From: Fomes fomentarius | Lineage: Eukaryota > Basidiomycota > Agaricomycetes > Polyporales > Polyporaceae | Assembly (NCBI GenBank): GCA_022606135.1 | Contig: JABYQN010000016.1 | Span: 1 to 64,000, forward strand | Direction of reading: 5' to 3' | Length of the DNA: 64,000 nt | Shown here: one piece after another, positions 3,175 to 59,494 of the stretch | Layout: the number at the start of each line of letters is the position of its first letter | How positions within the stretch are numbered: position 1 is the first letter of the stretch | Made by a program: the position numbers and the translations under genes | The notes under the pieces: generated by a model | The model's database searches: none | The model's input: only the letters and a program-made list of their open reading frames with translations | What the model was told of the DNA's origin: nothing

Positions 3175-4080
3175 TTCTATGCGATCACAACAAGGTATAT
3201 TGTTTCAAACTACTATAGATCAACGTTTCTACGTTCACTGACGAGCAGCGGGTTGAAATAAGGTCGACCGCGTACCCCGCCACATCCCAGACCTGCTCTC
3301 GCAAAATCGACATCTACGTCCTTTCCGGGTCCTCCGACCCCCGATCATGAGCTCTGGCGCGACAGCTCACAAACTAGCGACAGACCTCCGTCACCTCCGT
3401 CTTGCCAACTTGAACCTTAACAGTTCGTCTCAATTTGCCCTGGATGCTCAGACTTCTAGGACCACGGTTATCTAGGAAGATCAAGACTCAGTCAAGTTCA
3501 AATCAGCACAAATTGGGTTCTCCGGGTCTGCTTACAGCTTGAAAGCGCAATCTTAAATGCGTTCCGAGCTCATCTTCCGGCACCTGATAGTGCTGGGGCA
3601 GAACGCGTCTCCACAAATGGTTCGACTCGCGCACGCTCTACGACAGCGCTCGCCGCCGCCGTGGCATCACGCTCCGCATGGCGTTCCTCACGGCCGAATG
3701 CTCACCAAAGAATGATCATGGCGACCGTCAAGCGGGCGGGGACCGGCAGGAGGCGCGTGAGACGATCAGGGTGCGTCTTCCTCTTCTCCTTTCTTCACAG
3801 GGGGACCCACTCCGCCAGGAACTCGTGGGCCCGCTCTGAGCGCGCCCGATGAAGCGGTTGGGTTCGAGTAACGTGTCGAGCTGACTCTTGATCAGGTCGA
3901 ATGTGGAGTTCCTCATGCGCGAAATCAAGTCGGAGCCGGAGCTGCTTCGAGGCTTGACCTGGTGCGCTGCCCTTTGCGAGAGGGGCCTGTATGCCCTTCG
4001 TCGGTGCTTACGGCACGTTGTACTCGTAGAAGAGGGGCTGAACGGTAAAGTACAGGTACTGACTACATAGACGGAGAAAA
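3175..4080 (+). pseudogene. Rearranged partial copy of adenylosuccinate lyase gene
   Basis: Nucleotide similarity to the intact gene at 29.3-31.3 kb starts near 3175 (GCGATCACAACAAGGTAT, matching the exon-intron border near 30350). It covers the Thr-Ala-His-Lys-Leu-Ala stretch and the [11 protein letters not shown] region (near 3510-3560) and runs to the 3' end. Introns are still present, so this is a DNA-level copy, not a retrocopy. Many substitutions and indels destroy all frames, and a block matching about 30870-30960 is missing. The stretch from about 3800 to 3990 is inverted: it matches the reverse complement of the last exon (near 31095-31275). The 3' UTR and the start of repeat unit A follow in the same order as behind the intact gene. 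Confidence 0.85.
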
Positions 4081-5130
4081 CGCGAGAAAAGCAGAGCAGA
4101 GATGAATGAGAAAACGCATTTTGGTTTCCCCGCCCGCGCACCACCTCGGATGCGAGATAGCGTGCAGGCGGGTACTCATCCCGAGGACCACGAAAAGGTA
4201 TGCGCCAGGACCGGAGTCCCTCCCTCGGGAAAGGAAAGACCTACCTTCGCGGGCCCGCCCTATCCACCACCGCCACCACATCACCCAAGCCCGCCAACCT
4301 ACCCAAGCCTTGCTGTCTTGCTGTCTTGAAGTCTTGACACCTTGACGCACCAACCGCCGAATCTGCAAAGGTCAGCAATCACCCCATGAGAAGAGTAAAC
4401 GACCTACCTTTCCACGACCTCTGAAATCACACGTATTAGTATGCTGGTCGAGGAGATGGTCAGAGGATGACGTACCGTCGCGGAGAGGGCCGTTACCCCA
4501 CACCCGACCCAACCCAACCCAACAAACCCCCACTTCCTTGCGACCTATCAAGATGTCAATGCACCACACACGAAGCAAGGAGACGACCTACCTTCTCCGG
4601 ATCCGGAGCGGGGACAGTCCATGTGAGTACGCTGGACGTGGAGGATGGTGGGAGGGGACGTACCGTCTGATGGACACTTGAAGAGTCTTGATGGTGGAGG
4701 TGGGGAGGTGGGGAGAGCTCGGTCGGGGAGATGGTGGAAGGGGGACAAGACCGATGAGGGGGAGGTCAGCTCCCGACTCGCATTTTATACCCTCTGGATG
4801 GGTGTCAGCCTCTGGGCTCGATCTTCAGGGAGGCTGGCAAGTTCGTGTCCAAGACAATCTGGGCCCTTGCCCGCTCAGGTTTGCAGACACTGTTGGGCAT
4901 CCTGTTCGCCTGGTCAGTGACTTCTACGCGGTATGACAGGGACGGCATTCTCGACGTCTACGCTCTCAGAGGCGAAGAGAATGGGACGCGACGCGCGGAA
5001 CGTGACCGTGGTTTTCAGTATTGGTTGGCAGCCGCTCTCGCGTTCGAAATTGGACCTGAACGTCATGATGCTCGCGTTTCGTGTTCGGCGCGTCACCACT
5101 CCTCTCACTGGCGTTTGCACTTCAGCGAGA
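4080..5130 (-). repeat. Gene-like repeat unit A (type II promoter)
   Basis: Isolated member of the family that fills 31.5-44.1 kb. On the minus strand: TATA-like TATAAAA at 4783-4789, the inverted-repeat motif just upstream (about 4800-4840), first-exon region ending before a GTACGTCC donor (about 4660), the GTAGGTCGTTTACTC intron (about 4400), and the conserved 3' block shared by all units (4112-4240). The first exon has no ATG at the position where units E and I have one. It follows the lyase pseudogene exactly as unit B follows the intact lyase gene, so gene end and repeat moved together. Confidence 0.85.
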
Positions 5131-24750: not shown

Positions 24751-25267
24751 CCGTCTTGAAGTGATTGGACTTTGTCGTTGTCTTGCTCTTGCTTGCTTGC
24801 ACTTTTGTATCACCATGTCATGTTCAAGTACTATAACTTATGCGTTCTTGTTGCTCACGAATTATTTTAGTCCATTTCCCCCTTCAAATCACAGCCTTAG
24901 CGGTCAGGTTTGCTCTGTTACAAGGATGTTCATCGGCCGATCATGTGATGTTTTCTTCTGTTCGTCACATCGATTCGTTTTGTGTCCGCGTCTGCTCTTG
25001 ACTTCCACCAGCCGCACAAGTCAGCCGCATCCACAGCCTACTCCCCACGTTGTCCATATACCCACATAGCCTAGAGGTGAGCACCTCATATCGCCATATA
25101 TGCCTTGAATTGACGTTGTTGCAGAATCCTGCGATACCCGAACACACGGTGCGTACTGCCTACAGAATGACCTCATACAATGCTCTCGTTAATTTCTCCT
25201 AGCCTCCAGCTCCCACAGACTATCTACCCTACAGTCTCTTCTATCTCTGAATCTCTGACTTTGCAAG
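24751..25267. other. Intergenic, no supported gene
   Basis: About 500 bp of AT-richer spacer; nothing recognised. Confidence 0.5.
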
Positions 25268-29340: not shown

Positions 29341-31346
29341 ATGGAGGCCTTCGACACGTACCAGACGCCGCTCTCAAGGTTCATATCCAGCGTTCATGTT
29401 TGTGTAATGTGGAATGGGCATCCTGATCTCGACCTAGCCGATATGCGAGCAAGGAAATGGCACATCTGTTCTCTCCGGCTGTATGTTTCCTTTCTCCTCT
29501 GTACTACCCCGCCCGTAGGCCATCGCCGACGGCTCCATTCACTGCATAGAATCGCTTCCATACCTGGCGGAAGCTCTGGTTGAACCTCGCGATCGCGGAA
29601 AAGGAGCTCGGGCTCTCAATCTCAGATGAGGCTATCGAACAGATGAAGGCGAATCTGGTGAGTTTTTCTGTCTTCGCGGCGTGTCCGATGCGTCCGCCGT
29701 CGCGTAGGCCCATCCAACCTGTCGACTTGTAGCATCTCGACGCGCAGCAATTTGACATCGCCGCGGCAGAGGAAAAGAAGAGACGCCATGATGTCATGGC
29801 CCATGTCCATACATTCGGTCAAGTCGCCCCTGCGGCTGCCGGGATCATCCAGTGCGTAGTGCTCCCCTACTACCATACTCACCCTCACGATCGCATACAC
29901 AGCTTGGGAGCAACATCATGTTACGTTACAGAGTACGCACGCGAACTCTCTAGGCCTGTGTCTCTTCCCAGGTTGCTAATCGAGCCACGGCAGTAACGCG
30001 GACCTGATCTTCATCCGGGAGGCACTCACTCTTCTCCTCCAAAAGCTTGCTGTTGTCATCGACCGCTTCGCCAACTTTGCGAATCAGTACCGTGATCTCC
30101 CGACGCTCGGCTTCACCCACTTCCAGCCTGCACAGTTGACCACCGTCGGCAAGCGTACGACGCTCTGGTTGCAGGTAGGTCCAATGCCGAAGTGCCCCTA
30201 CTGTGTGCTAATTCGACGGCCCGACATGCGTAGGAGCTGTTATGGGATCTGCGCAACATCAAGCGTGCGCGAGATGACCTTGGCTTCCGCGGTGTGAAGG
30301 GTACGACTGGCACCCAGGCCAGTTTCCTCACACTGTTCGATGGCGATCACGACAAGGTATGTTATTCCACACTATGAATGGCAGTTCACAAACGGACCGC
30401 GCACAGGTTGAAGAACTCGACCGCCGAGTCACCTCCCTGTCAGGCTTTGGCTACGCGTACCCCGTTACATCCCAGACCTACTCCCGCAAAATTGACATCG
30501 ACGTCCTCGCCCCGCTTGCGAGTTTCGGTGCGACGGCTCACAAGCTCGCAACCGACCTCCGTCTTCTTGCCAACCTCAAGGTGTGTTCTGCTGCATAGAG
30601 TCCTACGTTGTGGACGCTCACCGAAAGGGCTTATATCTACAGGAAGTCGAAGAGCCCTTCGAGTCGACACAAATCGGGTCCTCCGCGATGGCGTACAAGC
30701 GCAATCCCATGCGTTCCGAGCGCATCTGCAGTCTCGCGCGGCACCTGATGGTGCTGCAGCAGAACGCGCTCAACACAGCGAGCGTGCAGTGGTTCGAGCG
30801 CACGCTCGATGACAGCGCCAACCGCCGCATCACGCTCCCCGAGGCGTTCCTCACGGCCGACATCGTGCTCACGACGCTCCAGAACGTGTCCGAGGGCCTC
30901 GTCGTGTACCCAAAGGTCATCGCGCGCCGGATCGCGCAGGAGCTCCCGTTCATGGCGACGGAGAACATCATCATGGCGATCGTCAAGGCGGGCGGAGACC
31001 GGCAGGAGGCGCATGAGAAGATCCGGGTGCGCGTCACTCTCTTGTCCTTTCTTCACTTTCATTTTATTGATTCCATTACGTGGATATACAGGTCCTCTCG
31101 CAAGAAGCGGCGCACCAGGTCAAGCAGCTCGGGCTCGAGAACGACTTGATCGAGCGCGTGAAGAATGACCCGTACTTCGACCCGATCAAGGGCCAGCTCG
31201 ACGCGTTGCTCGAACCAAAGAGCTTTATCGGGCGCGCGCCGGAGCAGGTCGACAGGTTCCTCGCGGAGTGGGTCCGCCCTGCGCTTGCGGACGAGGAGCT
31301 GCAGGCTGCACTCGGGAAGGCGGGGAAGGCGGAGCTGAATGTCTGA
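29341..31346 (+). CDS. ADE13: Adenylosuccinate lyase
   Basis: Cytosolic purine biosynthesis enzyme of the fumarase/aspartase superfamily, acting twice: SAICAR to AICAR plus fumarate, and adenylosuccinate to AMP plus fumarate. About ten exons. The first ATG is at 29341 ([20 protein letters not shown]); an earlier in-frame TTG is not a start. Visible: [70 protein letters not shown] and the family signature [20 protein letters not shown] (catalytic Ser loop). The C-terminal domain runs to KAGKAELNV. All exons are intact and in frame. Two broken copies of this gene lie in the window (3.2-4.1 and 48.05-48.4 kb), and repeat unit B begins about 130 bp after its stop. Confidence 0.95.
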
Positions 31347-31479
31347 GTCGCTGTCGCAGCATTCCGCTCGAGGACGTTGGAGTGGTTCAAAGATATAGAA
31401 GAGAGTATCGACGGCAAGTTGAGTTCATAGAAGGAGAAGCTGAAGGTAATGTACATGTACTACATAGACGAACAAAACA

Positions 31480-32560
31480 GAGAAGAGCGGAGAAGAGAAG
31501 GGAAGAATAAGAAAACGCATTTTGGTTTCCCCGCCCGCGCACCACCTCGGATGTGAGATGGCGTGCAGACGGGTACTCGTCCCGAGGACCACGGAGAGGT
31601 ATGCGCCAGGACCGAAGTCCCTTCCTCGGGAAAGGAAAGACCTACCTTTCAGGCCCTACCTTGTGTCGCAATCTTGAAGCCTTGACGCCTTGAAGCCTTG
31701 AATCTTGAACGCCTTGACGCACCAACCGCCGAATCTGCAACAGTCAGCAATCACCCCATGAGAAGAGTAAACGACCTACCTTTCCACGACCTCTGAAATC
31801 ATGTGTGTTAGTATGCTAATCCCGAGGGACGGTAGAAGGAAGACGTACCGCCACGGAGGGGGCCCTTACCCCATACCCAACCCAACCCACTACAATCCCC
31901 ACCCGGATCTGCAAATGTCAGCAATCACCCCACGAGAAGAGTAAACGACCTACCTTTCCTCGACCTCGGGGAACCGCAGTGTTAGTATGCTACTTGAGGA
32001 TGAGGAGTGGGGAAGACGTACCGCCACGGAGAGAGGCCTCACCCCATACCCATGCTAACAAACCCTGACTCCCTCGCGTCCTGTCGAGATGTCAGTGCAC
32101 CACGCTCGAAGCAAGATGGTGGGGAGAGGACACACCGTCGGATGGAAACTTGCAGAGTCTTGAGGGTCGGGGGCAGGAGGCGGGGAGAGCTTGAGGGCGG
32201 GGAGATGGTGGAAGGGGAACAAGAGCGATGAGAGGGGGGTCAGCTCCCGACACGCATTATATACCCCTCTGGATGTGTGCCAGCCTCTTCTTGGGCTCGA
32301 TCTTCATGGAGGCTGACGAGTCCATGCCCGAGAAATACTAGAACTCAGGCCCCCACCCGAGGCTCGTGCTTCAAGCTTCAAGTGCGACCGGCCGTGGGGC
32401 GTCTTGTTCGCCCGGTCAGTGGCTTGGCTTCTGTGCACACATGACGGCGTGCTCGACATCTGCACTTCAAGAGGCAGACAGACTCCAGACTCGAGCGACG
32501 CGTACTTCAAGTTGGACGCGTGACACATGACCGCGACTCCGAGTTCTATATACTGACGGT
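31480..32560 (-). repeat. Gene-like repeat unit B (type II promoter)
   Basis: First unit of the main array, minus orientation, so its 3' block faces the 3' end of adenylosuccinate lyase. TATA element (TATATAAT) at 32256-32263 with the inverted-repeat motif upstream (about 32280-32320). Three copies of the internal module with the short GTCGAGGAAAG piece followed by the GTAGGTCGTTTACTC intron are seen (near 31780, 31960 and their spacers). The start codon seen in units E and I is absent, and the first donor is GTGTGTCC. It is head-to-head with unit C. Confidence 0.85.
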
Positions 32561-32569
32561 ATGATATTT

Positions 32570-34235
32570 GGAATGATAATGGAATTGTCAGTGGTCACCA
32601 CCATCTGCCATGACGCTTTCTAGGTGCACTGCAGCTGGTCGTCGCAGTCGACGTCCAGGCAGTGCAAGTCGCAAAGTTGTGACTGTTCCGAGTCGCGGCC
32701 GGGGCGCTGGCAAATCGCGGTCACGTTTCACGCGTCCTTCCGCAAGCGCTCTCCTTACTGCGGCTTCCGGAAAGCCGCGCCGACGTTCAGCACAACCTCG
32801 CTAGGCTGGCGAAAAAATGAAGGGAGCACTTATCGCTCACTTTGAAACAAAAGCGAGCGGATGAGGGCCCGGACTCGGAACGGCATCGGCGACCATTACG
32901 CGTTCAACCCTTTCAGAAACTCGGTCGCCGACTAGGGAGTCCTGCGACTATGACGCGCAAAGTTCTCAGTGCCAGCCTTCATGGAGATCGAGACCGGGAG
33001 GCTGACCTGCACACAAGGGGTATATAGCAGCGAGAGAGTTGTTGAATCCCAATCCCATCACTTCTTCTCTCCCTCCGACCATCTCCCCAACTTCGACTTT
33101 CCTCGCCCACTTCAAGTCTCACCTCGACCTTGTTCTTCAACACGTTCCCATAGCGGGTGTCTCTCTACCAATGGTACGTCCCTCACCTATCAGCTCTGAG
33201 TATAGCATGCTTATACGGCACTGTCCGAGGTAGGGGAGGGTTGGGGTGCGGGCTGTGGCTGCAGGTTTATCGTCGCCGGCATCTGCAAGGGCAGCGGCGG
33301 GGTTTCGACGGTACGTCTTCTCCTCTTCGCAGCATCCTCAAGCTGGATACTAACGCATGCGATTTCCGAGGTCGAGGAAAGGTAGGTCATTTACTCTTCT
33401 CATGGGGTGATTGCTGACGTTTACAGATCCGGGAGTTGGAGTTGGAGGTTGGAGTGTGGTTGGGTTGAGCAGGGTATGGATATGGGCTCTCTCCGTGACG
33501 GTATGTATTTCTCCTACCATCTCTCAGGATTAGTATACTAACACGCATGATTTCAGAGGTCGAGGAAAGGTAGGTCGTTTACTCTTCTCATGGGGTGATG
33601 GCTGACCGTTGCAGATTCGGCCGTCGGTGCGTCAAGGCTTCAAGACTTCAAGGCGACAAGGTTTCAAGACTGCGAGACAAGGTAGGGCCCCAAAGGTAGG
33701 TCTTTCCTTTCCCGAGGAAGGGACTTCGGTCCTGGCGCATACCTCTTCGTGGTCCTCGGGACGAGTACCCGCCTGCGCGCCATCTCGCATCCGAGGTGGT
33801 GCGCGGGCGGGGAAACCAAAATGCGCTTTCTCTTTTATCTTTGCTATGCGACGTTTCATGAATGTGAATTTGTCTTGTCAGTGCTGCATGGATGTAGTGT
33901 ACTGAATACATACGCGGTCGAAGAGAATTTGATAGTCAACCTTGAGTGAAGAGAAAGTGGACACAGGCTTCCTGTGATGGTTCCTCCCTCGATCACAGTC
34001 CCAGGGGTAATGTGCGGAGGTGCGTGCGTAATCGGGCTCAAGGTCAGCATACACATGAATTCCATCCCGTCTCCGTTGTGTTGGACATCATCGTGCGTTG
34101 GCCAGCAAGTTAGTGTTGCCTGAAAATGTGCTCTAGAGGTATATTCGTGCATGGAGCGAAGCATACAGCCAGCCTGAATTACAGAGCTCCGAGTCTGCAA
34201 GACCAAACAGCCAGAGAGCGGCGTCGCCGTCGGAA
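32570..34235 (+). repeat. Gene-like repeat unit C (type I promoter) plus spacer
   Basis: Plus orientation. Upstream region with CTCGGTCGCCGACTAGG-like conserved block (32920-32940), inverted-repeat motif (about 32972-33005), TATA at 33021-33027, pyrimidine-rich leader, then ATG directly followed by a GTACGTCC donor (about 33171). Exon-like pieces with GTACGTCTTC donors, GGATACTAACGCATG branch site and a GTCGAGGAAAG microexon follow. The 3' block with GGTCCTCGGGACGAGTACCC is at 33690-33830. The spacer to 34235 is shared with other units. Confidence 0.85.
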
Positions 34236-35290
34236 TGCAAACTTTGGGTGACTGTGGCCGCGCGGCGGCTGTCCCGGGCAATCGCGGTCACGTTTCACGC
34301 GTCCTACCGCAAGCGCTCTCCTTACCGAAAAGCCGCGCGGATATTCAGCACGACCTCGCTAGGCTGGCACCAACGCGATTCACTGGGTTTACAAATAGAG
34401 GGAGTACTCAAAGCGCAATGTGAAAGAAAAGCGAGCGGGCGAGGCACCCGGATTCGGAACACTCTCGGACCGTATGGGATGATCGACCCTGCCATTACCG
34501 TAACGCGCACCTTGCAAGAACTCGGTCGCCGACTAGGCAGTCCTGCGACTATGACGCGCAAAGTTCTCAGTGCCAGCCTCCTTAGAGATTGAGACCGGGA
34601 GGCTGACGTCCATCAGAGGGGTATATAGCAGGGCGATGAAATTGAATCCCATCCCATCGTTCTTCTCTCCCCTCCACCATCTCCCCAACCTCGACGTTGA
34701 CTTCGACCCCTCGCCCACTTCAAGTCTCAACCCGACCTTGATTCTTCAAGACACTCCCACAGCGGGTGCCTCTCCACGGATAGTGCGTCCCTCACCAACC
34801 GGCTCTAAGTCTAGCATGCTCATAGTCCGAGGTAGGGGACGGGTCAGGTTATCATCGCCGGCATTCGTAAGGGCAGCGGCGGGGTTTGGACGGTACGTCT
34901 TCCCCTATTTTCAGCATTTCAAGCAGGATACTAACGCATACGATTTTTGAGGTCGAGGAAAGGTAGGTCGTTTACTCTTCTCATGGGGTGATGGCTGACC
35001 GTTGCAGATCCGGCCGTCGGTGCATCAAGGAGTCAAGGTTTCAAGGCGTCAAGACTTCAAGGAAAGGTAGGGCCCAAAAGGTAGGTCTTTCCTTCCCGAG
35101 GAAGGGACTTCGGTCCTGGCGCATACCTCTCCGTGGTCCTCGGGACGAGTACCCGCCTGCACGCCATCCTCGCATCCGAGGTGGTGCGCGGGCGGGGAAA
35201 CCAAAATGCGTTTTTTGTTTTTCACATTCTATTGTGATGCACTGGCATCAAATGTGTAGCACATTTACGTTACCCTCATATACTTCAACT
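34236..35290 (+). repeat. Gene-like repeat unit D (type I promoter)
   Basis: Head-to-tail with C. TATA at 34622-34628 preceded by the inverted-repeat motif. The codon before the first donor is ATA, not ATG, and the donor reads GTGCGT. Only one GTCGAGGAAAG module remains (about 34953), so it is shortened internally. 3' block at 35085-35215. Confidence 0.85.
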
Positions 35291-36485
35291 TAAGCCTTAT
35301 GCTCCAGTCGTCCTCAACGGTCACACCGTCTCAGAATCTCCGAGTCGCCGAAATTTTGCGTGACAGCATCCTCTCTTCGTACCGGAGTGTTCACACAGCG
35401 AATAGACCATCCAAAGTGCAAAAAACCAGTGAGAAGAGTTATTGGCAAGCGAGCGCGAGCATCATGACGTAGCGGTTCAAGCTCAAGACCAAGTCCGATT
35501 CCGGACGACAGTATCACCACGCGACGTGTGTATTCGTATCCTCACGTCCGACAGCGCGAATGCCCAGCACACGCTTACGCACAAGTCATCTACTCCCGGT
35601 CCAACAAGACGGCCCAGTCGCAAGCGGGCGGGAGCCTAACACATCTCGTATGCGGACTGCAAGTCGAAGTTGCCAGCCTCCATAACGATCGAGTCCACTG
35701 GAGGCTGACACCCATTCGGAGGGTATATAACACGCACCAGGAGCTGACCTCCCTCCTCACTGATCTTGTCCCCCTTCCACCATCTCCCCGACCTCGAGCT
35801 CTCCCCACCTCCGACCATCGACCCTCGACGTCAAGATGTTCCGACAAGCTGCCTCTTCTCCTCGACAGCTCGACGGTACGTCCCTCTCCCGACAGATCCT
35901 GGACCAGCATACTAACACACGTGCTTCCCGAGGCCAAGGAAAGGTAAGTCGTTTACTCTTCTCGTGGGGTGATTGCTGACCTTCGCAGATCCGGGAGTCG
36001 GAGTCGGAGTTGGGTTGGGTTGGGTATGGGGCATGGGCTCTCTCCGTGACGGTATGTATTCGTCCTATGATCTCTCGGGATTAGCATACTGATACGCATG
36101 ATTTCAGAGGTCGAGGAAAGGTAGGTCGGTTACTCTTCTCATGGGGTGATGGCTGACCGTTACAGATTCGTCAAGGTGTCAAGGTTTCAAGGCGTCAAGA
36201 CTTCGAGAAAAGGTAGGGCCCCAAAGGTAGGCGTTTCCTTTCCCGAGGGAAGGACTTCGGTCCTGGCGCATACCTCTCCGTGGTCCTCGGGACGAGTACC
36301 CGCTTGCGCACCATCTCGCATCCGAGGTGTTGCGCGAGCGGCGAAACTAAAATGCGTTTTCTTTCTTATCTTTGCTAAAGTTCCTGGGCTGAGATGTGTC
36401 GTAAATTTCAAGTTTTGTTCGTCCTGCATAAATGTAGCCGACTAGTAGTACTGAATACATACGCGGTCGAAGAGAATTCAACGGT
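35290..36485 (+). repeat. Gene-like repeat unit E (type II promoter)
   Basis: Promoter differs from C/D/F but keeps the inverted repeat (arms 35674-35681 and 35700-35707) and TATATAA at 35724-35730. The first exon here begins ATG TTC CGA CAA (about 35835) and ends before a GTACGTCCC donor; the frame can be carried through a GCCAAGGAAAG microexon. Two intron modules with CATACTAACACACG and CATACTGATACGCATG branch regions. 3' block at 36220-36365. Confidence 0.85.
35674..35730 (+). promoter_or_regulatory. Inverted repeat plus TATA box, unit E
   Basis: CAGCCTCC at 35674 and GGAGGCTG at 35700 form an 8-bp perfect inverted repeat with an 18-bp gap, 16 bp upstream of TATATAA at 35724. The same arrangement, with small changes, stands before the TATA box in most of the other units examined, including those with a diverged promoter, so it is probably the binding site of a dimeric regulator. 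Confidence 0.6.
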
Positions 36486-37170
36486 CCGCTTTCAGTGAGG
36501 AGAGTGCGCACAGGCTGTAATAGTCCCTCCCTCGCTCAAGTCCCAGGTAGAGTATGCCCGGTAATGCGTGGAAGCGCTCGCGTCCGCCGGGCTAAAGGTC
36601 AGTATTCACAACTTCCCGTGTCCGTACAAGGAGACGTGACACCATCGTGCGTTGGCTGGCAAGTCAGTGTTGCCTATGAATTGCGCTCTAGGGTCCTGAG
36701 ATTAGTTCGTGCATAGAGCGAAGCTTACAGCCTATTACAGAGCTCCGCAGGACCAAAAAGGCAGACAGGGCTCGTGGGTCGAGCATCAGGGTACAATCTG
36801 TGATGAGCACTTGTTACTCGGGTAGGCGGTCGTCGCAGTCGTCGCAGTCGACGTGCAAGTCTCACTTCTGTGGGCGGCTATTGCGGTCACGTCCTTCCGC
36901 AAGCGCGCGCTCTCCTGACCAAGTCTTGCCCTCCAAAGCCGCGCGGACGTTCAGCACGGCCTCGCTAGGGTAGCAGCAAAAAAGCAATTCAATGGTGAAT
37001 GCATAGAAGGACCACTCAGAGCGCTGCTCGACGAGGATACGAGGGGCCCGGACTCGGCACTCTCGACTGGGCCGTATGGACATCGGCGAGCTGTGCCATT
37101 ACGCACCATTCAAAACACTCGGTCGCCGACTAGGCAGTCCTGCGACTATGACGCGCGAAGTTCTCAGTGC

Positions 37171-37225
37171 CAGCCTCCATGGAAATCGAGCCCGGGAGGC
37201 TGACCTCCACCAGAGGGGTATATAG
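37171..37225 (+). promoter_or_regulatory. Inverted repeat plus TATA box, unit F
   Basis: Perfect arms CAGCCTCC (37171-37178) and GGAGGCTG (37195-37202), then TATATAG at 37219, the same geometry as unit E although the rest of the two promoters has diverged. Confidence 0.6.
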
Positions 37226-37610
37226 CAGGGCGATGAAATCGATTCCCATCCCATCGTTCTTCTCCCCTCCACCATCTCTACGACCTCGACCCTTCCTCCT
37301 CGACCTTGGTCCTTCAAGACGTTCCCACAGTGGGTGCATCTCCACGGGTGCCAGTACGTCCCTTACCTACCAGCTCCAAGTCTAGCATGCTCATACGGCG
37401 CTGTCGGAGGGGTGCGGGTTACCGCTGCAGATTGACGTCGCCGGCATCAGCAAGGGCAGCGGCGGGGTCTCAACGGTACGTCTTCTCCTCTCCGTAGCAT
37501 CCTCAAGCAGGATACTAACGCATACGATTTCCGAGGTTGACAAAGGTAGGTCCTTTACTTTTCTCGTGGGGTGATTGCTGACCTTTGCAGATTCGGGAGG
37601 GAGTTGGAGT

Positions 37611-37639
37611 GGGTTGGGTTGGGTTGGGTTGGGTTGGGT
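37611..37639 (+). repeat. (GGGTT)n short tandem repeat
   Basis: Five to six GGGTT units inside the middle exon of unit F; the other units have one to three. A source of length differences between units. Confidence 0.85.
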
Positions 37640-38682
37640 ATGGGGTATGGGCTCTCTGCGAGACGGTATATATTTCTCCAACCATCTCTCGGGGTTAGCA
37701 TACTGATACGCATGCTTTCAGAGGTCGAGGAAAGGTAGGTCGTTTACTCTTCTCATGGGGTGATGGCTGACAGTTGCAGACTCGGATTCGGCGGTCGGTG
37801 CGTCAAGGAGTCAAGGCTTCAAGACGTCAAGGTTGCAAGACTGCGAGACAAGGTAGGGTCCCAAAGGTAGGCGTTTCCTTTCCCGAGGGAGGGACTTCGG
37901 TCCTGGCGCATACCTCTCCGTGGTCCTCGGGACGAGTACCCGCCTGCGCGCTCTCTCGTATACGAGTTGGTGCGGAGGCGGGGAAACCAAAATGCGCTTT
38001 CTCTGTTATGACTGCTATGCTTCCGCGACGGAGACAATTCATGGATTTGAAACCTTGTCAGTACTGCATGGATGTGACCTAGTGAATACTGAATACATAC
38101 GCGGTCGAAGAGAATCTTCCCCTGATCGTCGCATCTCGTGCCGGAGACGACTGTTATCTGAGAGGTGGGTTTCCGAGTAAACGCCATCAGGTGCTGTGAT
38201 GAGCCATTTGAGATTGAAGTCAAGTTCCAGTCCGATCTCTTCGGGCAGCGTCGATCGACACTAACTAATCTGAGGGGAAAAGACAAAGCGCCGGCGTGCG
38301 ATTGGCTGCCCCACATTTCCCCGCAGAATTCAAGAGGGAAAGGCGATTGCCGAGAAAGGGCTGGCGGAGAGAGGCGGGCTGAAGTTGGAGCACAGGACCT
38401 CACAGGACCTCCCGGGATGCTCCTGTCCAGCTGCGCCCCCTGGGCCCACCTGATATAAACCAGCTCGTCGCTCCATCCACGCCCCTCTTCCTCGTTCTCA
38501 CTCGTCTCTCAGCCTCGTCGTCCCCCTCAACGATCTCGACCTTTCCGTCTCCCTCGGCCTGCGCACTTCGCGGCTGCTCTATCTATTCTTCAAGACAAAC
38601 ACTAGATTCACTTCTGCCTTGCAAGGCGTAGTCTATCTATAACATCTCTAACAACTAGACGGAGACAAGACTGACGACGATC

Positions 38683-39355
38683 ATGGTACGTCTCGATCTG
38701 TCGTTTTTCATCCATTGCTCACTCGTCTTCGCACTTCACCTTGCATGTGTAGCCGGCTCATGAAGATCACCATCGCACCCACGACGAGGCCCATGTTCTG
38801 AGCTTGCGCCTAGCCCTGGGTTCCATCCTCTCACCCGTAAGTCCGCCCCTCTACACCCGCTCCTCCGATCCGCCGCTCCTCCGCGCCCCCGGTGCGTGCC
38901 ATGACGAAGGACGCGCTTGACCATCCACGCAGAAACGCCCCCAGATGACGCGCTCGTCCACAAACTCTGGAACTGCCAGTCCCGCAGTGCATTCCCCGCA
39001 CTCCTCCATCCCGCTCTCCCCGGCCCACTCCAACTCGTCCTCGCACCCCGCCCCACACGCCCACGTCCCGACCTCGCATTCTGCGCCGCCGCATGGCCAC
39101 CATCCGCACCACCTGCACTACCCGCATGGGCATGGCCATTCTCACCTGCACGCCAGCCACCAGCCAATGATGCCCGGCGGGGAGGGCACACATGGATTCG
39201 ACGATTCGCATCCGCACATACCCGACGCTGTCGCAGCTCCGGGCCCTACTACACCTGTGTCGGGCGCTGTGACTCCAAATGGACGCGCACACTTTGTCGA
39301 GACGCTGCAGTCGAAGAAGTGGGGAGATGCACTGGTACACGGCTCGTGGGTGTGA
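38683..39355 (+). CDS. Small His-rich protein at the centre of the repeat array
   Basis: Exons 38683-38685 (ATG only), 38753-38836 and 38933-39355 give 169 residues. The N-terminal AHEDHHRTHDEAHVLSLRLA helix-like part is followed by a Ser/Pro/His-rich middle with runs such as HHPHHLHYPHGHGHSHLH, and an ordered-looking C-terminus HFVETLQSKKWGDALVHGSW. His clusters suggest metal binding, but this is inference; I do not recognise the family. TATA-like TGATATAAAC lies at 38450-38459, about 225 bp upstream of the ATG, with a long pyrimidine-rich leader. The ATG directly before a GTACGTCTC donor mirrors repeat units C and H. Units C-F point at it from the left and G-I from the right. Confidence 0.7.
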
Positions 39356-40040
39356 GCATGTGCGGGGTAGGTTCCCATGGACTTGGGGCTCCGGGCGCGC
39401 TTCCGTTCCCCGCTCTCACCTCATGCCTCTTTATTTCTGTATCTTGTTTTACTAGATCGTCTGGGTTTTGTGATAGAGTCCGAGCTGGAGACGCACGGTC
39501 TCGGGTTATGCTATCGCGTTCAAGATCTCTCCTCATACGTATGTATTACTTATCACTGATCAGTAATCTCCTCGGCCTAGGCTGTAGGACCGCTACAATC
39601 CAGACCGTAACACGTTATCTCCTTACGTTTTGACGACTCGTGGCGCTGTTCGATTTCCGCGTTCAGAGTTCTACTAGACGGGCGCCCGCGCGCCTTTCTC
39701 ATGTGCTGCGTGCTCCATCCAGTACTCCGCATCCGAGACGTTCGGAACCGGGCTTCAACCATCGTCATAACGCTCGCGCTCGCTTGACAATCTATCTCAC
39801 TGGGTCTTTGCACTTGCCGTCATGCTGTTGCAAAACTCGGGTATGAAGAGAGACATGTCACGCAGTAGATCGGTGACTCGGAGTGATGGTGAGTAGTGAA
39901 CAAGGGACGATCGGATCATGCATGTAAGGATCTGAAGGTAACGTACACGTTCTACATGTTCTATGCCACTACGTCATCACATCCAACACCCACAGACAGT
40001 CATCGGCTCTCAACGTGGCCCAACAAGCAGGTAACTAGAT
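39356..40040. other. 3' flank of the His-rich gene
   Basis: No gene seen. Frames here are short and without domains. It ends where unit G begins. Confidence 0.4.
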
Positions 40041-41545
40041 ACAAGACTCAGAGTCAAGAGAATGTGAAACATAAAGCAGAAAGCGCATTTCGGTTTCCCC
40101 GCCTCTGCATCACCTCGTATACGAGATGGCGCGCAGGCGGGTACTCGTCCCGAGGACCACGGAGAGGTATGCGCCAGGACCGAAGTCCCTCCCTCGGGAA
40201 AGGAAAGACCTACCTTTGGGCCCTACCTTTCCTTGAAGTCTTGACGCCTTGAAACCTTGACGCCTTGACGGCCGAATCTGCAAACGTCAGCCATCATCAC
40301 CCCATGAGAAGAGTAAACGACCTACCTTTCCTCGACCTCTGAAATCATGCGTGTTAGCATGCTAATCCGGAGAGATCGTAGGAGGGATACATACCGTCTC
40401 GGAGAGAGCCCATACCCCATACCCAACCCAACCCAACTAACCTCCAACTCCCCTCCCGAATCTGCGAACGTCAGCCATCACCCCACGAGAAGAGTAAACG
40501 ACTTACCTTTCCTCGACCTCGGAAATCGTATGCGTTAGTATGCTGCTCGATGATGCTGAGGAGAGAGGAAGACGTACCGTTGAGACCCCGCCGCTGCCCT
40601 TGCTGATGCCGGCGATGATAACCTACAGCCATATCCCCTACCTCGGAGGCCTATGAGCATGCTAGACTTGGAGCTGGTAGGTGAGGGACGTACTGGCACT
40701 CGTGGAGAGGCACCCGCTGTGGGAACATCAAGGTCGAGGAGGAAGGGTCGAGGTCGGGGAGGTGGAGGGGAGAGGGGAGAGAAGAGCTCGGATGGGATGG
40801 GATTCAATTTCATCGCTCTGCTATATACCCCGCAGCTCTGGTGGACGTCAGCCTCCCGGGCTCGATCTACATGGAGGCTGGCACTGACTACCTTGCACGT
40901 CATAGTCGCAGGACTGCCTAGTCAGTGAAAAGGTGCGTACTAATGGCACTGGTCCGAGATGTCCAAATGGTCGAGTGTTCCGAGTCTGGGGCCCCCCTTC
41001 GCTCGCTATCCTTTCAAAGTGCGCTATAAGTGCTCCCTTTATGTGTCCTAACCAGTAAACTGCTTTGTTGCCAGCTTATCGAGGTCGTGCTGAACGTCCG
41101 CACGGCTTTGGAGGATAGGACTCGGTAAGGAGAGCGAGCGCTTGCGGAAGGACGTGACCGCGATAGCCGCCCAGAGAAGTGAGACACGAAGTTGCACGTC
41201 GACTGCGACGACCGCCTCCCCGAGTAACAGGTACTCATCACAGATTTTACTTTGATGCTTAACACACGAGCTCCCTCTCTGCCTCTTTGGTCTTGCGGAG
41301 CTCTGTAATTGCCTGTATGCTTCGCTCTATGCACGAACTCACCTCAGGCCCCTAGAGCACATTCATAAGCAATACTGACTTGCCAGCCAACGCACTCCTT
41401 TTCAACACAACGGAAACGGGAGGAAGGTGTGAATACTGCCCTTGAGCCCGGCGGACGCGAGCGCTTCCGCGCATTACCCGGGACTTGAGCGAGGGAGGGA
41501 CCATGACAGCCTGTGCCCACTCTCCTCACTAAAAGCTTACCATTG
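40040..41545 (-). repeat. Gene-like repeat unit G (type I promoter)
   Basis: Minus orientation. 3' block at 40070-40220, two intron modules (near 40320 and 40505), TATATAG (minus) at 40821-40827 with inverted-repeat motif at about 40845-40885, and no ATG before the first donor (GCCA|GTACGTCC). The upstream region to 41545 matches that of units F and H. Confidence 0.85.
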
Positions 41546-43140
41546 AAATATCTTCGACCGCGTACGTATTCAGTATTACTAGGTTACATTTGTATTTATT
41601 GAGTACTGACACGGCTTCACATTCACGAAACGTCGCATAGCAAAGATAAAAGAGAAAGCGCATTTTGGTTTCGCCGCCCGCGCACCACGTCGGATGCGAG
41701 ATGGCGCGCAGGCGGGTACTCGTCCCGAGGACCACGGAGAGGTATGCGCCAGGACCGAAGTCCCTTCCTCGGGAAAGGAAAGACCTACCTTTGGGGCCCT
41801 ACCTTGTCTCGCAGTCTTGAAACCTTGACGCACCGACGGCCGGATCTGCAACGGTCAGCCATCACCCCATGAGAAGAGTAAACGACCTACCTTTCCTCGA
41901 CCTCGGAAATCATGCGTGTTAGTATGCTGATCCCGAGAGACGGTAGGAGGAATACATACCGTCACGGAGAGAGCCCATACCCCATACCCAACCCAATCCA
42001 ACGAACTCCAACTCCGGGATCTGCAAAGGTCAGCAATCACCCCATGAGAAGAGTAAACGACCTACCTTTCCTCGACCTCGGAAATCGTATGTGTTAGTAT
42101 GCTGCTCGATGATGCTGAGGAGAGAGGAAGACGTACCGTCGAGACTCCGCCGCTGCCCTTGCTGATCCCGGAGACGATAACCTGCAGCCATAACCCGCAC
42201 CAGTACCTTGGACAGTGCCGTATGAGCATGCTAGACCTAGAGCTGGTAGGTGAGGGACGTACCATCCATGGATAGGCACACGCCGTGGGACGTCTTGAAG
42301 GAACAAGGTCGGGTTGAGGCTTGAAGTGGGCGAGGGGTCGAAGTCAAGGTCGAGGTTGGGGAGATGGTGGAGGGGAGAGAAGAGTGATGGGATGGGATTC
42401 GATTTCATGGCGCTGCTATATCCCCTCTGGTGGACGTCAGCCTCCCGGGATCGGTTTACATGGAGGCTGGCACTGACCACTTTGCGCGTCATAGTCGCAG
42501 GACTGCCTAGTCGGCGACTGAGTCTTCGCAAGGGCAGGGCGATGCCCATACGGTCCGAGAGTGTTCCGAGTCCGGGCCCCTCGCCCACTCGATTTTCTTT
42601 CTCATTGTGCTTGGGGTGCACCCTTTTTCATTGAACCAGTGAGTTGCTTTGGTGCCAGCCTAGCGAGGTCGTGCTGAATATTCGCGTGGCTTTGGAGGGC
42701 AGGATTCGTTACCGGGTAAGGAGAGCGCTTGCGGAAGGACTCGTGAAACGTGACCGCGATTGCCCGGGACAGCGGCCCGGACAGTCACAACTCGACGGCG
42801 ACAACTAACAAGTACTCTCTGCGGATTGTGCCCTGACATTCACCCTACAAATTCCTCTCTGGCTGTTTGGTCTGTCAGAGCTCTGTCACTCAGGCTGGCT
42901 GTATGCGCCTTCGCTCTATGCACGAACTTACCTCTAGAGCACATTCTTAGGCAACATTGACTTGCTGGCCAACGCACCATGTCACGTCTCTTCTCAACAC
43001 AACGGAGACTGGAGGGAATTGTGAATGTTGACCTTCAGCCCGGACGCGAGCACCTCCGCGCATTACCGTCGGACGGGCATACTTTACCTGGGACCGGGAG
43101 GGACCATCACAGGAAGCCTGTGTTGACTCTCTCCTAACTA
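41545..43140 (-). repeat. Gene-like repeat unit H (type I promoter)
   Basis: Best preserved minus unit: 3' block 41645-41800, two copies of the GTCGAGGAAAG microexon (41891-41901 and 42066-42076), promoter with a GATATAG element at 42416-42422, inverted repeat at about 42440-42475, and upstream spacer to 43140. It keeps ATG before the first donor and an open spliced frame (listed as a separate CDS). Confidence 0.88.
41785..42265 (-). CDS. Putative 63-residue spliced reading frame in unit H
   Basis: Minus-strand exons 42265-42263 (ATG), 42181-42137, 42076-42066, 42020-41960, 41901-41891 and 41845-41785 sum to 192 nt and read without a stop to TAG at 41787-41785. The product begins MVIVSGISKGSGGVST, and each of the two 11-nt microexons yields Val-Glu-Glu-Arg, so the protein carries a small internal repeat. 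Every junction is GT-AG and two introns have CATACTAACAC branch sites. No domain or signal peptide is seen. Unit C keeps the ATG but shifts frame; D, F and G lost the ATG. It may be a real small protein, or an accident of a spliced non-coding RNA. Confidence 0.35.
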
Positions 43141-44110
43141 AAAGGTGGCTATTGGAATCTCTTTGACCGCGTATGTATTCAGTACCACTAGTAGGCTACA
43201 TCCATGCATCACTGTCAAAACGTCAAATTCACGAATTGTCTCGGACCAGACATAGAAGAGATACAAAGAGAAAACGCATTTTGGTTTCCCCGCCCGCGCA
43301 CCACGTCGGATGCGAGATGGTGCGCAAGCGGGTACTCGTCCCGAGGACCACGGAGAGGTATGCGTCAGGACCGGAGTCCCTCCCTCGGGAAAGGAAAGAC
43401 CTACCTTTCGGGCCCTACCTTGTCTCGCAGTCTCGAAGCCTTGACGCACCGACGGCCTGATCTGCAACGGTCAGCCATCACCCCACGAGAAGAGTAAACG
43501 ACCTACCTTTCCTCGGCCTCGGGGAGCACGTGTGTTAGTATGCTGCTCCAAGATCTGTCGGGAGAGGGACGTACCGTCGAGCTGTCGAAGAGAAGAGGCA
43601 GCTGTCGCAACATCTTGACTCTTGAGGGTTGAGGGTCGAGGGTGGGAGGTGGGGAGAGCTCGAGGTCGGGGAGAGCTCGAGGTCGGGGAGATGGTTGAAG
43701 GAGGACAAGAGCAGTGAGGAGGGAGGTCAGCTCCTGGTGCGTTTTATATACCCTCAGAATGGGTGTCCGCCTCTGGACTCGATCTTCATGAGGGCTGGCA
43801 AGTCCCTGTCCGAGATGCTCTGGGCCCCTAGTGCCCTCTTGCAGCCGAGCGTGACCGTTCCTTTGGCCGGTCGATGAGTTCTGTGCGAGCATAACGGGGA
43901 CGCGTTCGACATCTGCGCTCTCAGGCGAAGAGAGCGCATGCGGAGGACCGTGACCGCGATTCTGACACTTGCAGTCGCTCCGAGATATTGAGAATGACTC
44001 GGACGTGGACCGCGACTCGACTCGTAACGCTCTCAAGTTTTCTAGACGCAACACCTCTTGGCACCGGATCTCTATGTCATCTTGAATCGCTTAGTTGCAT
44101 GAACCCTCTA
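43140..44110 (-). repeat. Gene-like repeat unit I (type II promoter)
   Basis: Right end of the array. 3' block at 43278-43420, one intron module (about 43500), first exon with ATG TTG CGA CAG (minus, about 43610) very like unit E, a duplicated GAGCTCGAGGTCGGG leader segment (43655-43685), TATATAAAA (minus) at 43742-43750, and the upstream region shared with unit A. Confidence 0.85.
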
Positions 44111-44799: not shown

Positions 44800-46053
44800 C
44801 TACAATTTGGAACGCCTGACATCTCCCTTCTTCGGCGACAATTGTACCGTTCTTTCCTTCTGCACTCGCAATCCATCTGTGCCAAAATACCGACCACTTT
44901 CGAAGTTCCAACTGTCGTTCGCCCGAGGCCAGTTCATGAGATGGTCGACGTAGAATGCGAGGTCCACGTCAATCTGGGGTGAGAACGATAACGCAAGTAC
45001 TTGCGGCCAAATTGAAATGGCGTGCTCGAGTCGCACCTTGTGTTGTTTGGCTACCCATTCGAGGGCACCGTCGATATCGAGTTTGTACTCGTGCATTGCG
45101 ACGATGAGGACATTGTGGGGGTCGTCTCCGGCCGCCTGTTCTTTCTTGTATGATGCGATATCCTTCATCCAGCCATGTCAGTACGCTTGATTTTCTCTAC
45201 CGCGACTCTCTCTCGCCCTTACGTTGTCAAAGATGATGATGTCGGTGACGTCCGCACGCAGAGCATGCAGCAAAGGGTGCTCAAACACCTCCGCAGGAAG
45301 TTCAAGCCCCATCTCTGCCGCCGCATAGCAAGGATCTGCGCCGGAGGTGAATCTCCGGACGACCATATACTCCTCGACAGTGCGTAGCCTCCCCTCATCT
45401 CTGTCTCTCGCTTGCTCTACGACGGCCGTCGTGAAGAGGTCCCAGGCGCCTATGAACCGTTGACAGGAAATAAGTGTGGCATTCTGAATGAAGTGCGTCC
45501 AAAACCTGAATGACGTATGAGTGACCAAACATCATGTCCCAGTAATCGCACTCACTGTCTCGTGATCTCTCCAAGGATAGCCTCCTCCTTCGGCCATTCC
45601 TTGGAAGGATTCCGGAGGACATCCATGCATATATCGGCCATGGCGCGAGCTTGAGCCGCGTTCAAGTCGTCCGTATAATCATCGAAGAAAGATATCAGAT
45701 TCATGAGGTTGCATGCTGCACGAAAATGCTCTGTGACGGTATCAGAAATTTGCCGCTGCAACTTGCCTACGACCAAGTTCTTACCCTTGTCGGCGGTTGG
45801 GTAGGCGCGACCTACGAGTAAGCCTATGCCGGAAAGCAACCTCAGCACGACTCTCCCGAAACGACGTGACTGTGCACTTACCGAAGTTGCAGCGGTCGAA
45901 CACCTTTTGTGCACTCGGACTGAGCGCATGGAAGGATCTGAACCACTCTGCCGACTCCTCAGCAACTTCTTCATACAATGGAGATATACGAGGGGGAATA
46001 GGCCAATTGTCCATGGTCCGGGGCAGACGGATGACTCGAACGTGCCACCCCAT
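44800..46053 (-). CDS. Sesquiterpene synthase (TS2)
   Basis: Five exons on the minus strand (46053-45882, 45823-45785, 45730-45556, 45505-45223, 45162-44800) give 343 residues. Class I terpene synthase: Asp-rich motif FFDDYTDDL, NSE motif formed at the fourth splice (NDIASYKKE then QAAGD), and the RY pair in SGRYFG near the C-terminus. N-terminus LPRTMDNWPIPPRISPLYEE matches basidiomycete synthases of the DDYTD type. It should convert farnesyl diphosphate to a cyclic sesquiterpene in the cytosol; product not predictable. The second exon is only 39 nt (LLVGRAYPTADK). No P450, oxidase or transporter is adjacent. Nearly identical in structure to TS3 at 58 kb. Confidence 0.93.
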
Positions 46054-46110
46054 GCTGCGAGGTCTTCCTAGGGCCTGAGATAACAGAGCAATGGTCCGGA
46101 TTCTACTGGC

Positions 46111-46140
46111 CCTTCTTATACGGGGTTTGCATGCTTAGTA
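46111..46140 (-). promoter_or_regulatory. TS2 core promoter element shared with TS3
   Basis: On the minus strand ACTAAGCATGCAAACCCC is followed by a TATAAG box, about 65 bp upstream of the TS2 ATG. The same 18 bp and a TATAAC box stand at 59471-59494 upstream of TS3, while surrounding sequence has diverged more, which suggests constraint. Confidence 0.5.
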
Positions 46141-59410: not shown

Positions 59411-59470
59411 GCTGGCGAGGTCTTCCGAATGCACAGATAGCGGTCATGGTCCAAACCCTCATAGCTCTTG

Positions 59471-59494
59471 TTATAAGGGGTTTGCATGCTTAGT
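59471..59494 (-). promoter_or_regulatory. TS3 core promoter element shared with TS2
   Basis: Minus strand ACTAAGCATGCAAACCCC followed by TATAAC, about 65 bp upstream of the TS3 ATG, identical 18-mer to that before TS2. Confidence 0.5.

What the first reader, a model, noticed from the sequence alone, without database searches (positions are those of the whole stretch)
31480..44110. Array of eight gene-like repeat units arranged around one small gene, with a ninth copy 27 kb away
Units of 1.0-1.6 kb share promoter, leader, intron and 3' blocks. B(-), C-F(+), the His-rich gene, then G-I(-): all but B point toward 38.7 kb. Unit A at 4.1-5.1 kb is the ninth copy. Spacers are shared too, so growth was by head-to-tail duplication followed by inversion. 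I know of no described family with this structure. It could be a tandem gene family, a spliced non-coding RNA array or a non-autonomous mobile element.
Basis: partly seen in the sequence, partly recalled or inferred. Interest (0 to 1): 0.85.

Follow-up and report, generated by a model that had tools for sequence, protein, structure and literature searches.

The report
RNA gene array ending in ribozymes
A tree-rotting fungus carries a cluster of repeated, apparently non-coding genes, each of which appears to end in a self-cutting RNA (an HDV-type ribozyme) that would trim its own transcript just after a splice signal; this points to an unusual way of finishing RNAs that can be tested directly.

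Summary
The array is real: nine diverged units (A-I) where stated. The genome is Fomes fomentarius. The shared 3' block is a conserved structured RNA with HDV-ribozyme topology and the three features reported for fungal HDV variants: C-G pair at the cleavage site, loop-E base of P4, extra nucleotide between P2 and P3. A generic HDV descriptor hits nine places in the window, one per unit, and 56 in the fetched DNA against 4 in six shuffles of it. At least 63 copies in two types exist genome-wide. Array units have a TATA site (12 of 13) and intron signals; 11 of 18 other loci have internally repeated sequence upstream. A splice-donor-like sequence lies 6-15 nt before the predicted cut in 22 of 22 copies of the array's type (one doubtful) and 0 of 41 of the other. 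Best reading: spliced non-coding RNA genes whose 3' end is made by ribozyme self-cleavage. The ribozyme class is known; gene architecture, array and donor coupling look new. No RNA data or cleavage assay were available.

The parts
33711..33827 (+). HDV-like ribozyme of unit C; predicted cut just before 33711
35095..35212 (+). HDV-like ribozyme of unit D; predicted cut just before 35095
36242..36358 (+). HDV-like ribozyme of unit E; predicted cut just before 36242 (outermost P4 pair broken)
37882..37998 (+). HDV-like ribozyme of unit F; predicted cut just before 37882
40082..40198 (-). HDV-like ribozyme of unit G; predicted cut just 5' of 40198
41657..41773 (-). HDV-like ribozyme of unit H; predicted cut just 5' of 41773 (outermost P4 pair broken)
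43273..43389 (-). HDV-like ribozyme of unit I; predicted cut just 5' of 43389
31514..31630 (-). HDV-like ribozyme of unit B; predicted cut just 5' of 31630
4113..4229 (-). HDV-like ribozyme of unit A; predicted cut just 5' of 4229
32970..33827 (+). unit C: promoter element, TATA near 33021, leader, introns, ribozyme (upstream limit by eye)
34572..35212 (+). unit D, promoter to ribozyme
35672..36358 (+). unit E, promoter to ribozyme
37169..37998 (+). unit F, promoter to ribozyme
40082..40882 (-). unit G, promoter to ribozyme
41657..42471 (-). unit H, promoter to ribozyme (exact TATA pattern lost)
43273..43800 (-). unit I, promoter to ribozyme (upstream limit by eye; no GGCTGAC element)
31514..32317 (-). 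unit B, promoter to ribozyme; points away from the small gene
4113..4838 (-). unit A, promoter to ribozyme, next to a duplicated adenylosuccinate lyase fragment
33345..33432 (+). first intron module of unit C (branch point, micro-exon, 45-nt intron, all read from signals)
33531..33620 (+). second intron module of unit C; 24 module copies aligned, 84% mean column identity
33696..33701 (+). splice-donor-like site (GTAGGT) starting 15 nt before the predicted cut of unit C; 14-15 nt in the other window units
38683..39355 (+). small His-rich, apparently protein-coding gene at the centre of the array (limits by eye; its long ORF has no Pfam match)
3269..4010 (+). duplicated pieces of the adenylosuccinate lyase 3' end beside unit A (3798-3992 inverted)

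Best explanation
Each unit is a small TATA-driven, multi-intron, probably non-coding RNA gene that ends in an HDV-like self-cleaving ribozyme of the fungal variant type. During transcription the introns are spliced, the ribozyme folds and cuts its own backbone at the first nucleotide of helix P1. That cut lies about 15 nt downstream of a last splice-donor-like sequence and would release the spliced upstream RNA with a fixed, non-polyadenylated 3' end that still carries a splice-donor stub. Shown by sequence: unit structure, ribozyme fold with covariation, donor spacing, copy number. Inferred: transcription, splicing, cleavage, and that the upstream fragment is the product. The array grew by tandem and inverted duplication; ribozymes of the same family occur elsewhere in the genome behind sequences with other repeated modules and behind one duplicated, apparently protein-coding gene.
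For: Covariation on 61 copies (57 distinct): 98.2% of cells paired against 91.9% in shuffles and at most 49.1% in slid controls; 11 pairs changed on both sides against 5.3 in shuffles. P2 and P3, which were not in the search model's structure, are 99.2% and 100% paired, with both-side changes. Of 63 parsed copies: J4/2 cytosine 63, P3 three pairs 63, P2 six pairs 58, P1 seven pairs 59, C-G at the cleavage end 62, AGTA 62 and GAA 60 of the putative loop E. The three published features of fungal HDV variants are present. A generic HDV descriptor finds exactly the nine units in the window, and 56 hits in 562,430 strand-bases of fetched DNA against 4 in 3,374,580 block-shuffled. One copy without the J1/2 hairpin aligns full-length to Rfam RF02682, HDV-F-prausnitzii, 20.5 bits, E 0.076 for that piece alone. 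In six long units mean pairwise identity is 0.92-0.93 in ribozyme and intron modules (second module in five units), 0.88 in the promoter, 0.70 in the leader and 0.43 in the stretch of up to 200 nt downstream. Donor-like sequence 6-15 nt before the cut in 22 of 22 ACC-type copies, 0 of 41 GCC-type.
Against: No RNA-seq or cleavage assay. The only HDV hit in Rfam is below the gathering score (20.5 of 44 bits); another hairpin-less copy gave no HDV hit, and a whole-genome scan with RF02682 found none at E 10 or less. All copies come from one genome and most are paralogues, so they are not independent. The tail pattern used to parse copies contains the J4/2 cytosine (two mismatches allowed), and 2 of the 65 core matches lacked the tail and were dropped (L026:3099, L074). 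The parser takes the best 7-mer upstream as P1, which is permissive and visibly wrong in some copies (L017, L034:3799, L049, L060, L073). The alignment behind one search was fitted to a model holding P1, P1.2 and P4, so those helices lean towards it. P1.1 does not directly follow P1 here and was not shown. The descriptor was written after seeing the sequences; 7 of the 63 copies fail it. Two other loci have long open frames that could mean coding: 228 codons without a stop upstream at C6 and 215 aa running through the ribozyme at C5:338 kb.
Confidence: 0.72

Rival explanations
1. Non-autonomous mobile element: the unit is a retrozyme-like or SINE-like element whose RNA is released by the ribozyme and copied by a reverse transcriptase supplied elsewhere.
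For: At least 63 ribozyme copies on many contigs; HDV-like ribozymes are common in retroelements (PMC7761336 passages); in one GCC subgroup (26 copies) ungapped identity falls off about 60 nt upstream of the cut and to about 0.6 within 5-25 nt after the ribozyme, beyond which most pieces end; the C2:349 kb copy matches a window unit roughly from promoter to ribozyme end, another match reaching about 80 nt further upstream.
Against: HDV-bearing retroelements in the papers seen carry the ribozyme at the 5' end (R2 and L1Tc: listing, passages); here it is at the 3' end of a promoter-bearing unit. No listed RVT_1 match within 10 kb of any of 69 places (the RT list is a lower bound). Traceable copying is segmental (unit A with the lyase fragment; C5:338-363 kb with a neighbouring gene) or tandem. 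Target-site duplications were not tested, and long flanks of 38 copies could not be fetched.
Confidence: 0.2
2. Tandem protein-coding gene family (for example small secreted proteins) with a ribozyme in the 3' UTR, as at the C5:2.89-2.90 Mb gene.
For: Two C5 copies lie about 90 nt after the stop codon of an apparent coiled-coil protein gene, read by eye; 3 of 6 long units keep an ATG at the first donor.
Against: ATG lost in the other 3 of 6; indels in the leader and one in a micro-exon that are not multiples of three; longest unspliced ATG frames 33, 50, 92, 104, 119 and 55 aa. Spliced models were not translated.
Confidence: 0.06
3. Silencing locus: convergent units C-F and G-I make complementary RNAs that pair and feed small-RNA silencing; the ribozyme only serves to keep the RNA in the nucleus.
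For: Mirror-image layout around 38.7 kb with inverted matches of about 77-93% identity.
Against: No RNA data; the C6 copy has the same kind of ribozyme with no second one in its 9-kb locus.
Confidence: 0.07
4. The 3' block is a conserved structured RNA of HDV-like shape that no longer cleaves (a protein-binding or stability element).
For: A few copies are decayed (L026:3099, L074, L060) and C2:3.2 Mb has a poor P1.
Against: The J4/2 cytosine, whose change to U inactivates HDV-like ribozymes (PMC10879173 passages), is kept in 63 of 63 parsed copies, and all nine window copies keep full P1, P2 and P3.
Confidence: 0.1

Closest known systems
Fungal HDV ribozyme variants (Li and Breaker 2017, PMC5640933; section 7 read in full, other passages seen)
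   Same: HDV-type nested pseudoknot, C-G pair at the cleavage site, loop E in P4, extra nucleotide between P2 and P3; 230 examples in 26 species with varied gene associations; two cleave in vitro.
   Different: Here the extra nucleotide is G or T (most commonly C in the paper) and covaries with a J4/2 position, and the ribozyme ends tandem multi-intron units next to a donor-like site. The section mentions no array or splice-donor link; figures and supplement were not available, so whether theirs carry a J1/2 hairpin is not known to me.
HDV-F-prausnitzii, Rfam RF02682
   Same: Full-length sub-threshold alignment of copy L061, similar L3 loop.
   Different: Bacterial, minimal model without a J1/2 hairpin; score under the gathering cut-off.
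Agam-2 HDV-like ribozymes with a P1.2 domain (PMC4908430, passages)
   Same: Paired domain in J1/2, reported to speed cleavage.
   Different: From a mosquito (recalled); no relation of gene context tested.
Spliceosome-made 3' ends of fungal telomerase RNA (PMC4299874, start of abstract in a search listing)
   Same: Functional RNA 3' end set by a splice site.
   Different: There the spliceosome makes the cut; here a ribozyme is predicted to cut 6-15 nt after the donor.
Retrozymes and ribozyme-bearing retroelements (PMC7761336 passages; PMC4918200 listing)
   Same: Multi-copy genomic units with a self-cleaving ribozyme.
   Different: Hammerhead motifs in retrozymes, 5' position in LINE-type elements; no RT within 10 kb here.

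Membership tests
HDV-like ribozyme, fungal variant | Nested double pseudoknot: P1, P2, P3 with P3 directly followed by the 3' strand of P1, then P4, J4/2, P2 | tested here: met
   Covariation and controls; all nine window copies. The second pseudoknot helix, P1.1, is listed apart
HDV-like ribozyme, fungal variant | Catalytic C at the start of J4/2 | tested here: met
   63 of 63 parsed copies, with the caveat that the parsing pattern includes it; 2 of 65 core matches lacked the tail
HDV-like ribozyme, fungal variant | C-G pair at the cleavage end of P1 | tested here: met
   62 of 63; published feature
HDV-like ribozyme, fungal variant | P4 partly replaced by a loop E motif | tested here: met
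   AGTA in 62 of 63 and GAA in 60 of 63 flanking P4; that AGTA/GAA is a loop E is recalled, the paper's figure was not available
HDV-like ribozyme, fungal variant | Extra nucleotide between P2 and P3 | tested here: met
   G 46, T 17 of 63; the paper says most commonly C, so the letter differs
HDV-like ribozyme, fungal variant | P1.1 helix between L3 and J1.1/4 | tested here: inconclusive
   Possible YU/AG pairs by eye, 3 nt from P1; no covariation test
HDV-like ribozyme, fungal variant | Self-cleavage in vitro | not testable with these tools
   needs an assay
HDV-like ribozyme, fungal variant | Match to an Rfam HDV model over its cut-off (not required by the paper) | tested here: not met
   No hit at gathering in the window; best 20.5 of 44 bits; genome scan with RF02682 none. 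The paper says such variants violate the criteria used earlier to find HDV ribozymes
Ribozyme-bearing retroelement or retrozyme | Reverse transcriptase in or near the element (autonomous form) | tested here: not met
   0 of 69 places within 10 kb of a listed RVT_1 match
Ribozyme-bearing retroelement or retrozyme | Target-site duplications or sharp insertion ends | not tested
Protein-coding tandem gene family | Conserved start codon and reading frame | tested here: not met
   ATG in 3 of 6 long units, frame-breaking indels; short unspliced frames; spliced models not translated
Rfam families other than HDV | Score over gathering cut-off | tested here: not met
   Only tRNA-Phe in the window; nothing over cut-off in the stretches searched of the intron modules and the C6 repeats

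The most novel reading that the evidence does not exclude
A class of spliced non-coding RNA genes that use an HDV-like ribozyme instead of poly(A) processing: the ribozyme cuts 6-15 nt past an unspliced donor, so the RNA ends with a donor able to hold U1 snRNP, while the 5' part carries tandem conserved RNA modules that differ between subfamilies. Cleavage and final-intron splicing would compete, giving a switch, and tandem and inverted duplication expands the gene as an array.
Probability: 0.35. Interest if true: 0.88.

Novelty: new variant of a known kind. Interest (0 to 1): 0.74.

Why it matters
HDV-like ribozymes are found in many genomes, but outside viruses and retroelements their jobs are mostly unknown (general knowledge). 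Here one genome offers more than 60 of them, many in a repeated and readable gene context: promoter, introns, splice donor, ribozyme. That makes a concrete question testable: does a nuclear genome use a self-cleaving ribozyme to make the 3' ends of its own non-coding RNAs, and does the cut compete with splicing? It would also supply a missing RNA-family model: no Rfam model reached its cut-off on any copy that I searched, so annotation pipelines built on Rfam would be expected to overlook them.

Tried and rejected
Tried without result: pattern scans of prokaryote genomes and of viral contigs (0 matches each); Rfam on the intron modules and on the C6 repeats (hits far under cut-off only); consensus fold without pseudoknots, which gives P2 and P1.2 but not P1 and P3; RF02682 over the genome (none). 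Considered and dropped: snoRNA host (no box pattern by eye, no Rfam hit over cut-off), telomerase RNA (many copies), Helitron or LTR ends (not tested formally), riboswitch at a splice donor (topology is HDV), assembly artefact (matching pieces differ by 4-25%). The pairing of AAGGU with ACCUU that I first entertained is weaker (80.6% of cells) than the P3 hairpin (100%). An early reading of the 42-nt C6 repeats as coding was dropped because the third letter of one codon gives stops in several copies (by eye), although one frame there is open for 228 codons; the script meant to count the repeats found only 2 because its best-match search skipped others, so 'about 14 copies' is a count by eye. 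The identity of the stretch between the two intron modules was not measured (its pattern matched nothing).
Full report
OBSERVATION. Self-comparison of the window confirms nine units. B lies at 31.5-32.3 kb (minus), C-F at 33.0-38.0 kb (plus), G-I at 40.1-43.8 kb (minus) and A at 4.1-4.8 kb (minus). Matching pieces are about 75-96% identical and spacers are shared, so this is diverged tandem and inverted duplication, not a mis-assembly of identical copies. Unit A lies beside copied pieces of the adenylosuccinate lyase 3' end (3269-4010 against 30454-31411, one piece inverted; Pfam ADSL_C). In the whole genome, three more units lie at C16:88.9-92.7 kb, one with its ribozyme plus a cut-off unit at the start of contig C15, and one at C2:349 kb. 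A window ORF is 94% identical to a Fomes fomentarius protein whose contig has the very length of C16, 669,782 bases, which names the organism.

ANATOMY OF A UNIT. The script marks, in 13 units (A-L without M, plus N), a GCCAGCCTC element in 9, a GGCTGAC promoter element in 12 (not I; in B in the other orientation), 23 nt before TATA in 9 and 28 nt in G, TATA in 12 (not H), and branch-point-like TACTRAY in 13. Twenty-four copies of the intron module align at 84% mean column identity, with the 45-nt intron the most constant part. In six long units mean pairwise identity is 0.88 for the promoter, 0.70 for the leader, 0.92 for the first and 0.93 for the second intron module (five units), 0.93 for the ribozyme and 0.43 for the stretch of up to 200 nt downstream. 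Intron and exon limits are read from signals, not from RNA.

THE 3' BLOCK IS AN HDV-TYPE RIBOZYME. Rfam finds nothing over its cut-off in the window except a tRNA. A DNA search found diverged solo copies, and a core pattern then found 65 places in the genome against 0 for the reversed pattern. A covariance model built on 18 copies recognises 12 new places at E 1e-8 to 1e-15, plus one chance-level match. Parsing gave 63 copies with core and tail; 2 of 65 lacked the tail and were dropped. Laid out, they show P1, J1/2 mostly with a variable hairpin, P2, an extra base, P3, a 7-nt L3, P3', P1', a linker, P4 and J4/2 with C-Y-R-A, then P2'. Pair counts on 61 aligned copies: 98.2% paired and 11 pairs changed on both sides; shuffles 91.9% and 5.3; slid controls 31-49%. 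P2 and P3 were not in the structure of the model used for alignment and are still 99.2% and 100% paired. The extra base and the J4/2 base M covary (G-C 45, T-A 17, G-T 1), and P3 changes from ACC/GGT to GCC/GGC in step with a J4/2 purine (22 and 41 of 63). A generic descriptor finds exactly nine places in the 64 kb, the nine units; over the fetched DNA 56 hits against 4 in six block-shuffled versions (12 overlapping loci left out; 7 of the 63 copies fail the descriptor). Copy L061, which lacks the J1/2 hairpin, aligns full-length to RF02682 at 20.5 bits, cut-off 44; copy L026 gave no HDV hit, and RF02682 over the genome gave none.

MEMBERSHIP. Li and Breaker (PMC5640933, section 7 read in full) describe 230 fungal HDV variants in 26 species with a C-G pair at the cleavage site, a loop E in P4 and an extra nucleotide between P2 and P3, and show cleavage for two. 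All three features are met here, with G or T rather than the usual C as the extra nucleotide, and with the loop E recognised from recall. The J1/2 hairpin resembles the P1.2 domain of the Agam-2 ribozymes, which speeds cleavage (PMC4908430, passages). That the catalytic C is the first place of J4/2 and that its change to U inactivates is stated in PMC10879173 (passages). Self-cleavage itself was not testable. So I file the 3' block as a fungal-variant HDV-like ribozyme, and the whole unit as a gene of unknown family ending in one.

GENOME-WIDE CONTEXT. Type ACC (22 copies): 14 array-type copies, two at the 3' end of a duplicated, apparently protein-coding gene (C5:2.89-2.90 Mb), a solo at C2:3.2 Mb, one at C6:1.38 Mb and four at C5:313-363 kb. 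Type GCC (41 copies): clusters on C4, C12 and C16, and scattered copies. Four further DNA matches (C4:172909, C12:1108796, C20:271455, C1:134036) have no recognisable core. At C6 a TATA-like site is followed by about 14 copies (by eye) of a 42-nt motif with variable spacers, then an intron-end-like sequence, a short exon, a donor and the ribozyme; one frame is open for 228 codons in this stretch, so coding is not strictly excluded there. At C4:167 kb a gene-like stretch with TATA (by eye) has 5.4 copies of a 216-nt module before the ribozyme. Internally repeated sequence covers 2% or more of up to 3 kb upstream of 11 of 18 loci with longer flanks, 2% of the downstream stretch in 1 of 18, and none of 12 control stretches of the window (window and L009 copies not counted; some of the 18 are paralogues, and one had only 334 bases upstream).

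SPLICE DONOR COUPLING. A GTRNGY donor-like sequence lies within 24 nt upstream of P1 in 22 of 22 ACC-type and 0 of 41 GCC-type copies, starting 6-15 nt before the predicted cut. For L017 the P1 chosen by the script is doubtful, so 21 are secure; 14 of them are array paralogues, leaving about five or six independent cases. In one GCC subgroup (26 copies) the last 60 nt before the cut are strongly conserved instead, which again suggests that the upstream fragment is the product.

MECHANISM. Shown: architecture, fold, conservation, donor spacing. Inferred: transcription from the TATA sites, splicing, co-transcriptional self-cleavage, release of an upstream RNA with a cyclic-phosphate 3' end and no poly(A). 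The nearest functional parallel is the telomerase RNA of fission yeast and other fungi, whose 3' end is made by spliceosomal cleavage (PMC4299874, start of abstract in the listing). What the upstream RNAs do is not known; tandem conserved modules suggest repeated binding sites.

MOBILITY. 91 reverse-transcriptase matches were listed (lower bound); the nearest to any of 69 ribozyme places is 10.9 kb away and 4 of 69 lie within 25 kb. Copying that can be traced is segmental or tandem. Target-site duplications were not tested, so a non-autonomous element stays possible.

NOVELTY IN PRINT. Searches of the open PMC library listed no paper that by title or abstract describes ribozyme-terminated non-coding gene arrays in fungi; each listing showed at most 25 papers, subscription papers are mostly missing, and the supplement of PMC5640933 was not available, so the ribozyme copies themselves may be in its list.

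Noticed in passing
L022 4650-6200 (C6:1.385 Mb), minus strand: About 14 copies (by eye) of a 42-nt motif with variable spacers between a TATA-like site and the ribozyme; no Rfam match over cut-off; one frame open for 228 codons.
   Followed up: partly
L031 3020-5230 (C4:167 kb), minus strand: Gene-like stretch with TATA and 5.4 tandem 216-nt modules before a GCC-type ribozyme; related modules in L032, L033, L036.
   Followed up: partly
L015 3480-5030 and L016 3900-5215 (C5:2.89-2.90 Mb): Two paralogous, apparently protein-coding genes with a ribozyme about 90 nt after the stop codon (by eye); whether the ribozyme removes the poly(A) tail of an mRNA is open.
   Followed up: partly
L017 4290-4800 (C2:3.2 Mb): Solo ribozyme with about five degenerate copies (by eye) of the array's donor motif upstream; perhaps an old relative of the array units.
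   Followed up: no
window 44817-46152 and 58182-59507: Two 1.3-kb stretches, 83% identical, same strand: a further duplication.
   Followed up: no
window 25259-26971: Frame with an integrase zinc-binding domain (PF17921), 94% identical to a Fomes fomentarius protein and with relatives in other Polyporales.
   Followed up: no
63 parsed ribozyme copies: The extra nucleotide between P2 and P3 covaries with a J4/2 position (G-C 45, T-A 17, G-T 1), suggesting that it is paired, with a bulged purine beside it; not mentioned in the section of PMC5640933 that I read.
   Followed up: yes
L028-L030 (C5:338-363 kb): Subfamily with about four CATGCGCTCAYGGACGCT-like repeats (by eye) upstream of the ribozyme, duplicated together with a neighbouring long-ORF gene (5'-nucleotidase-like by eye).
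   Followed up: no
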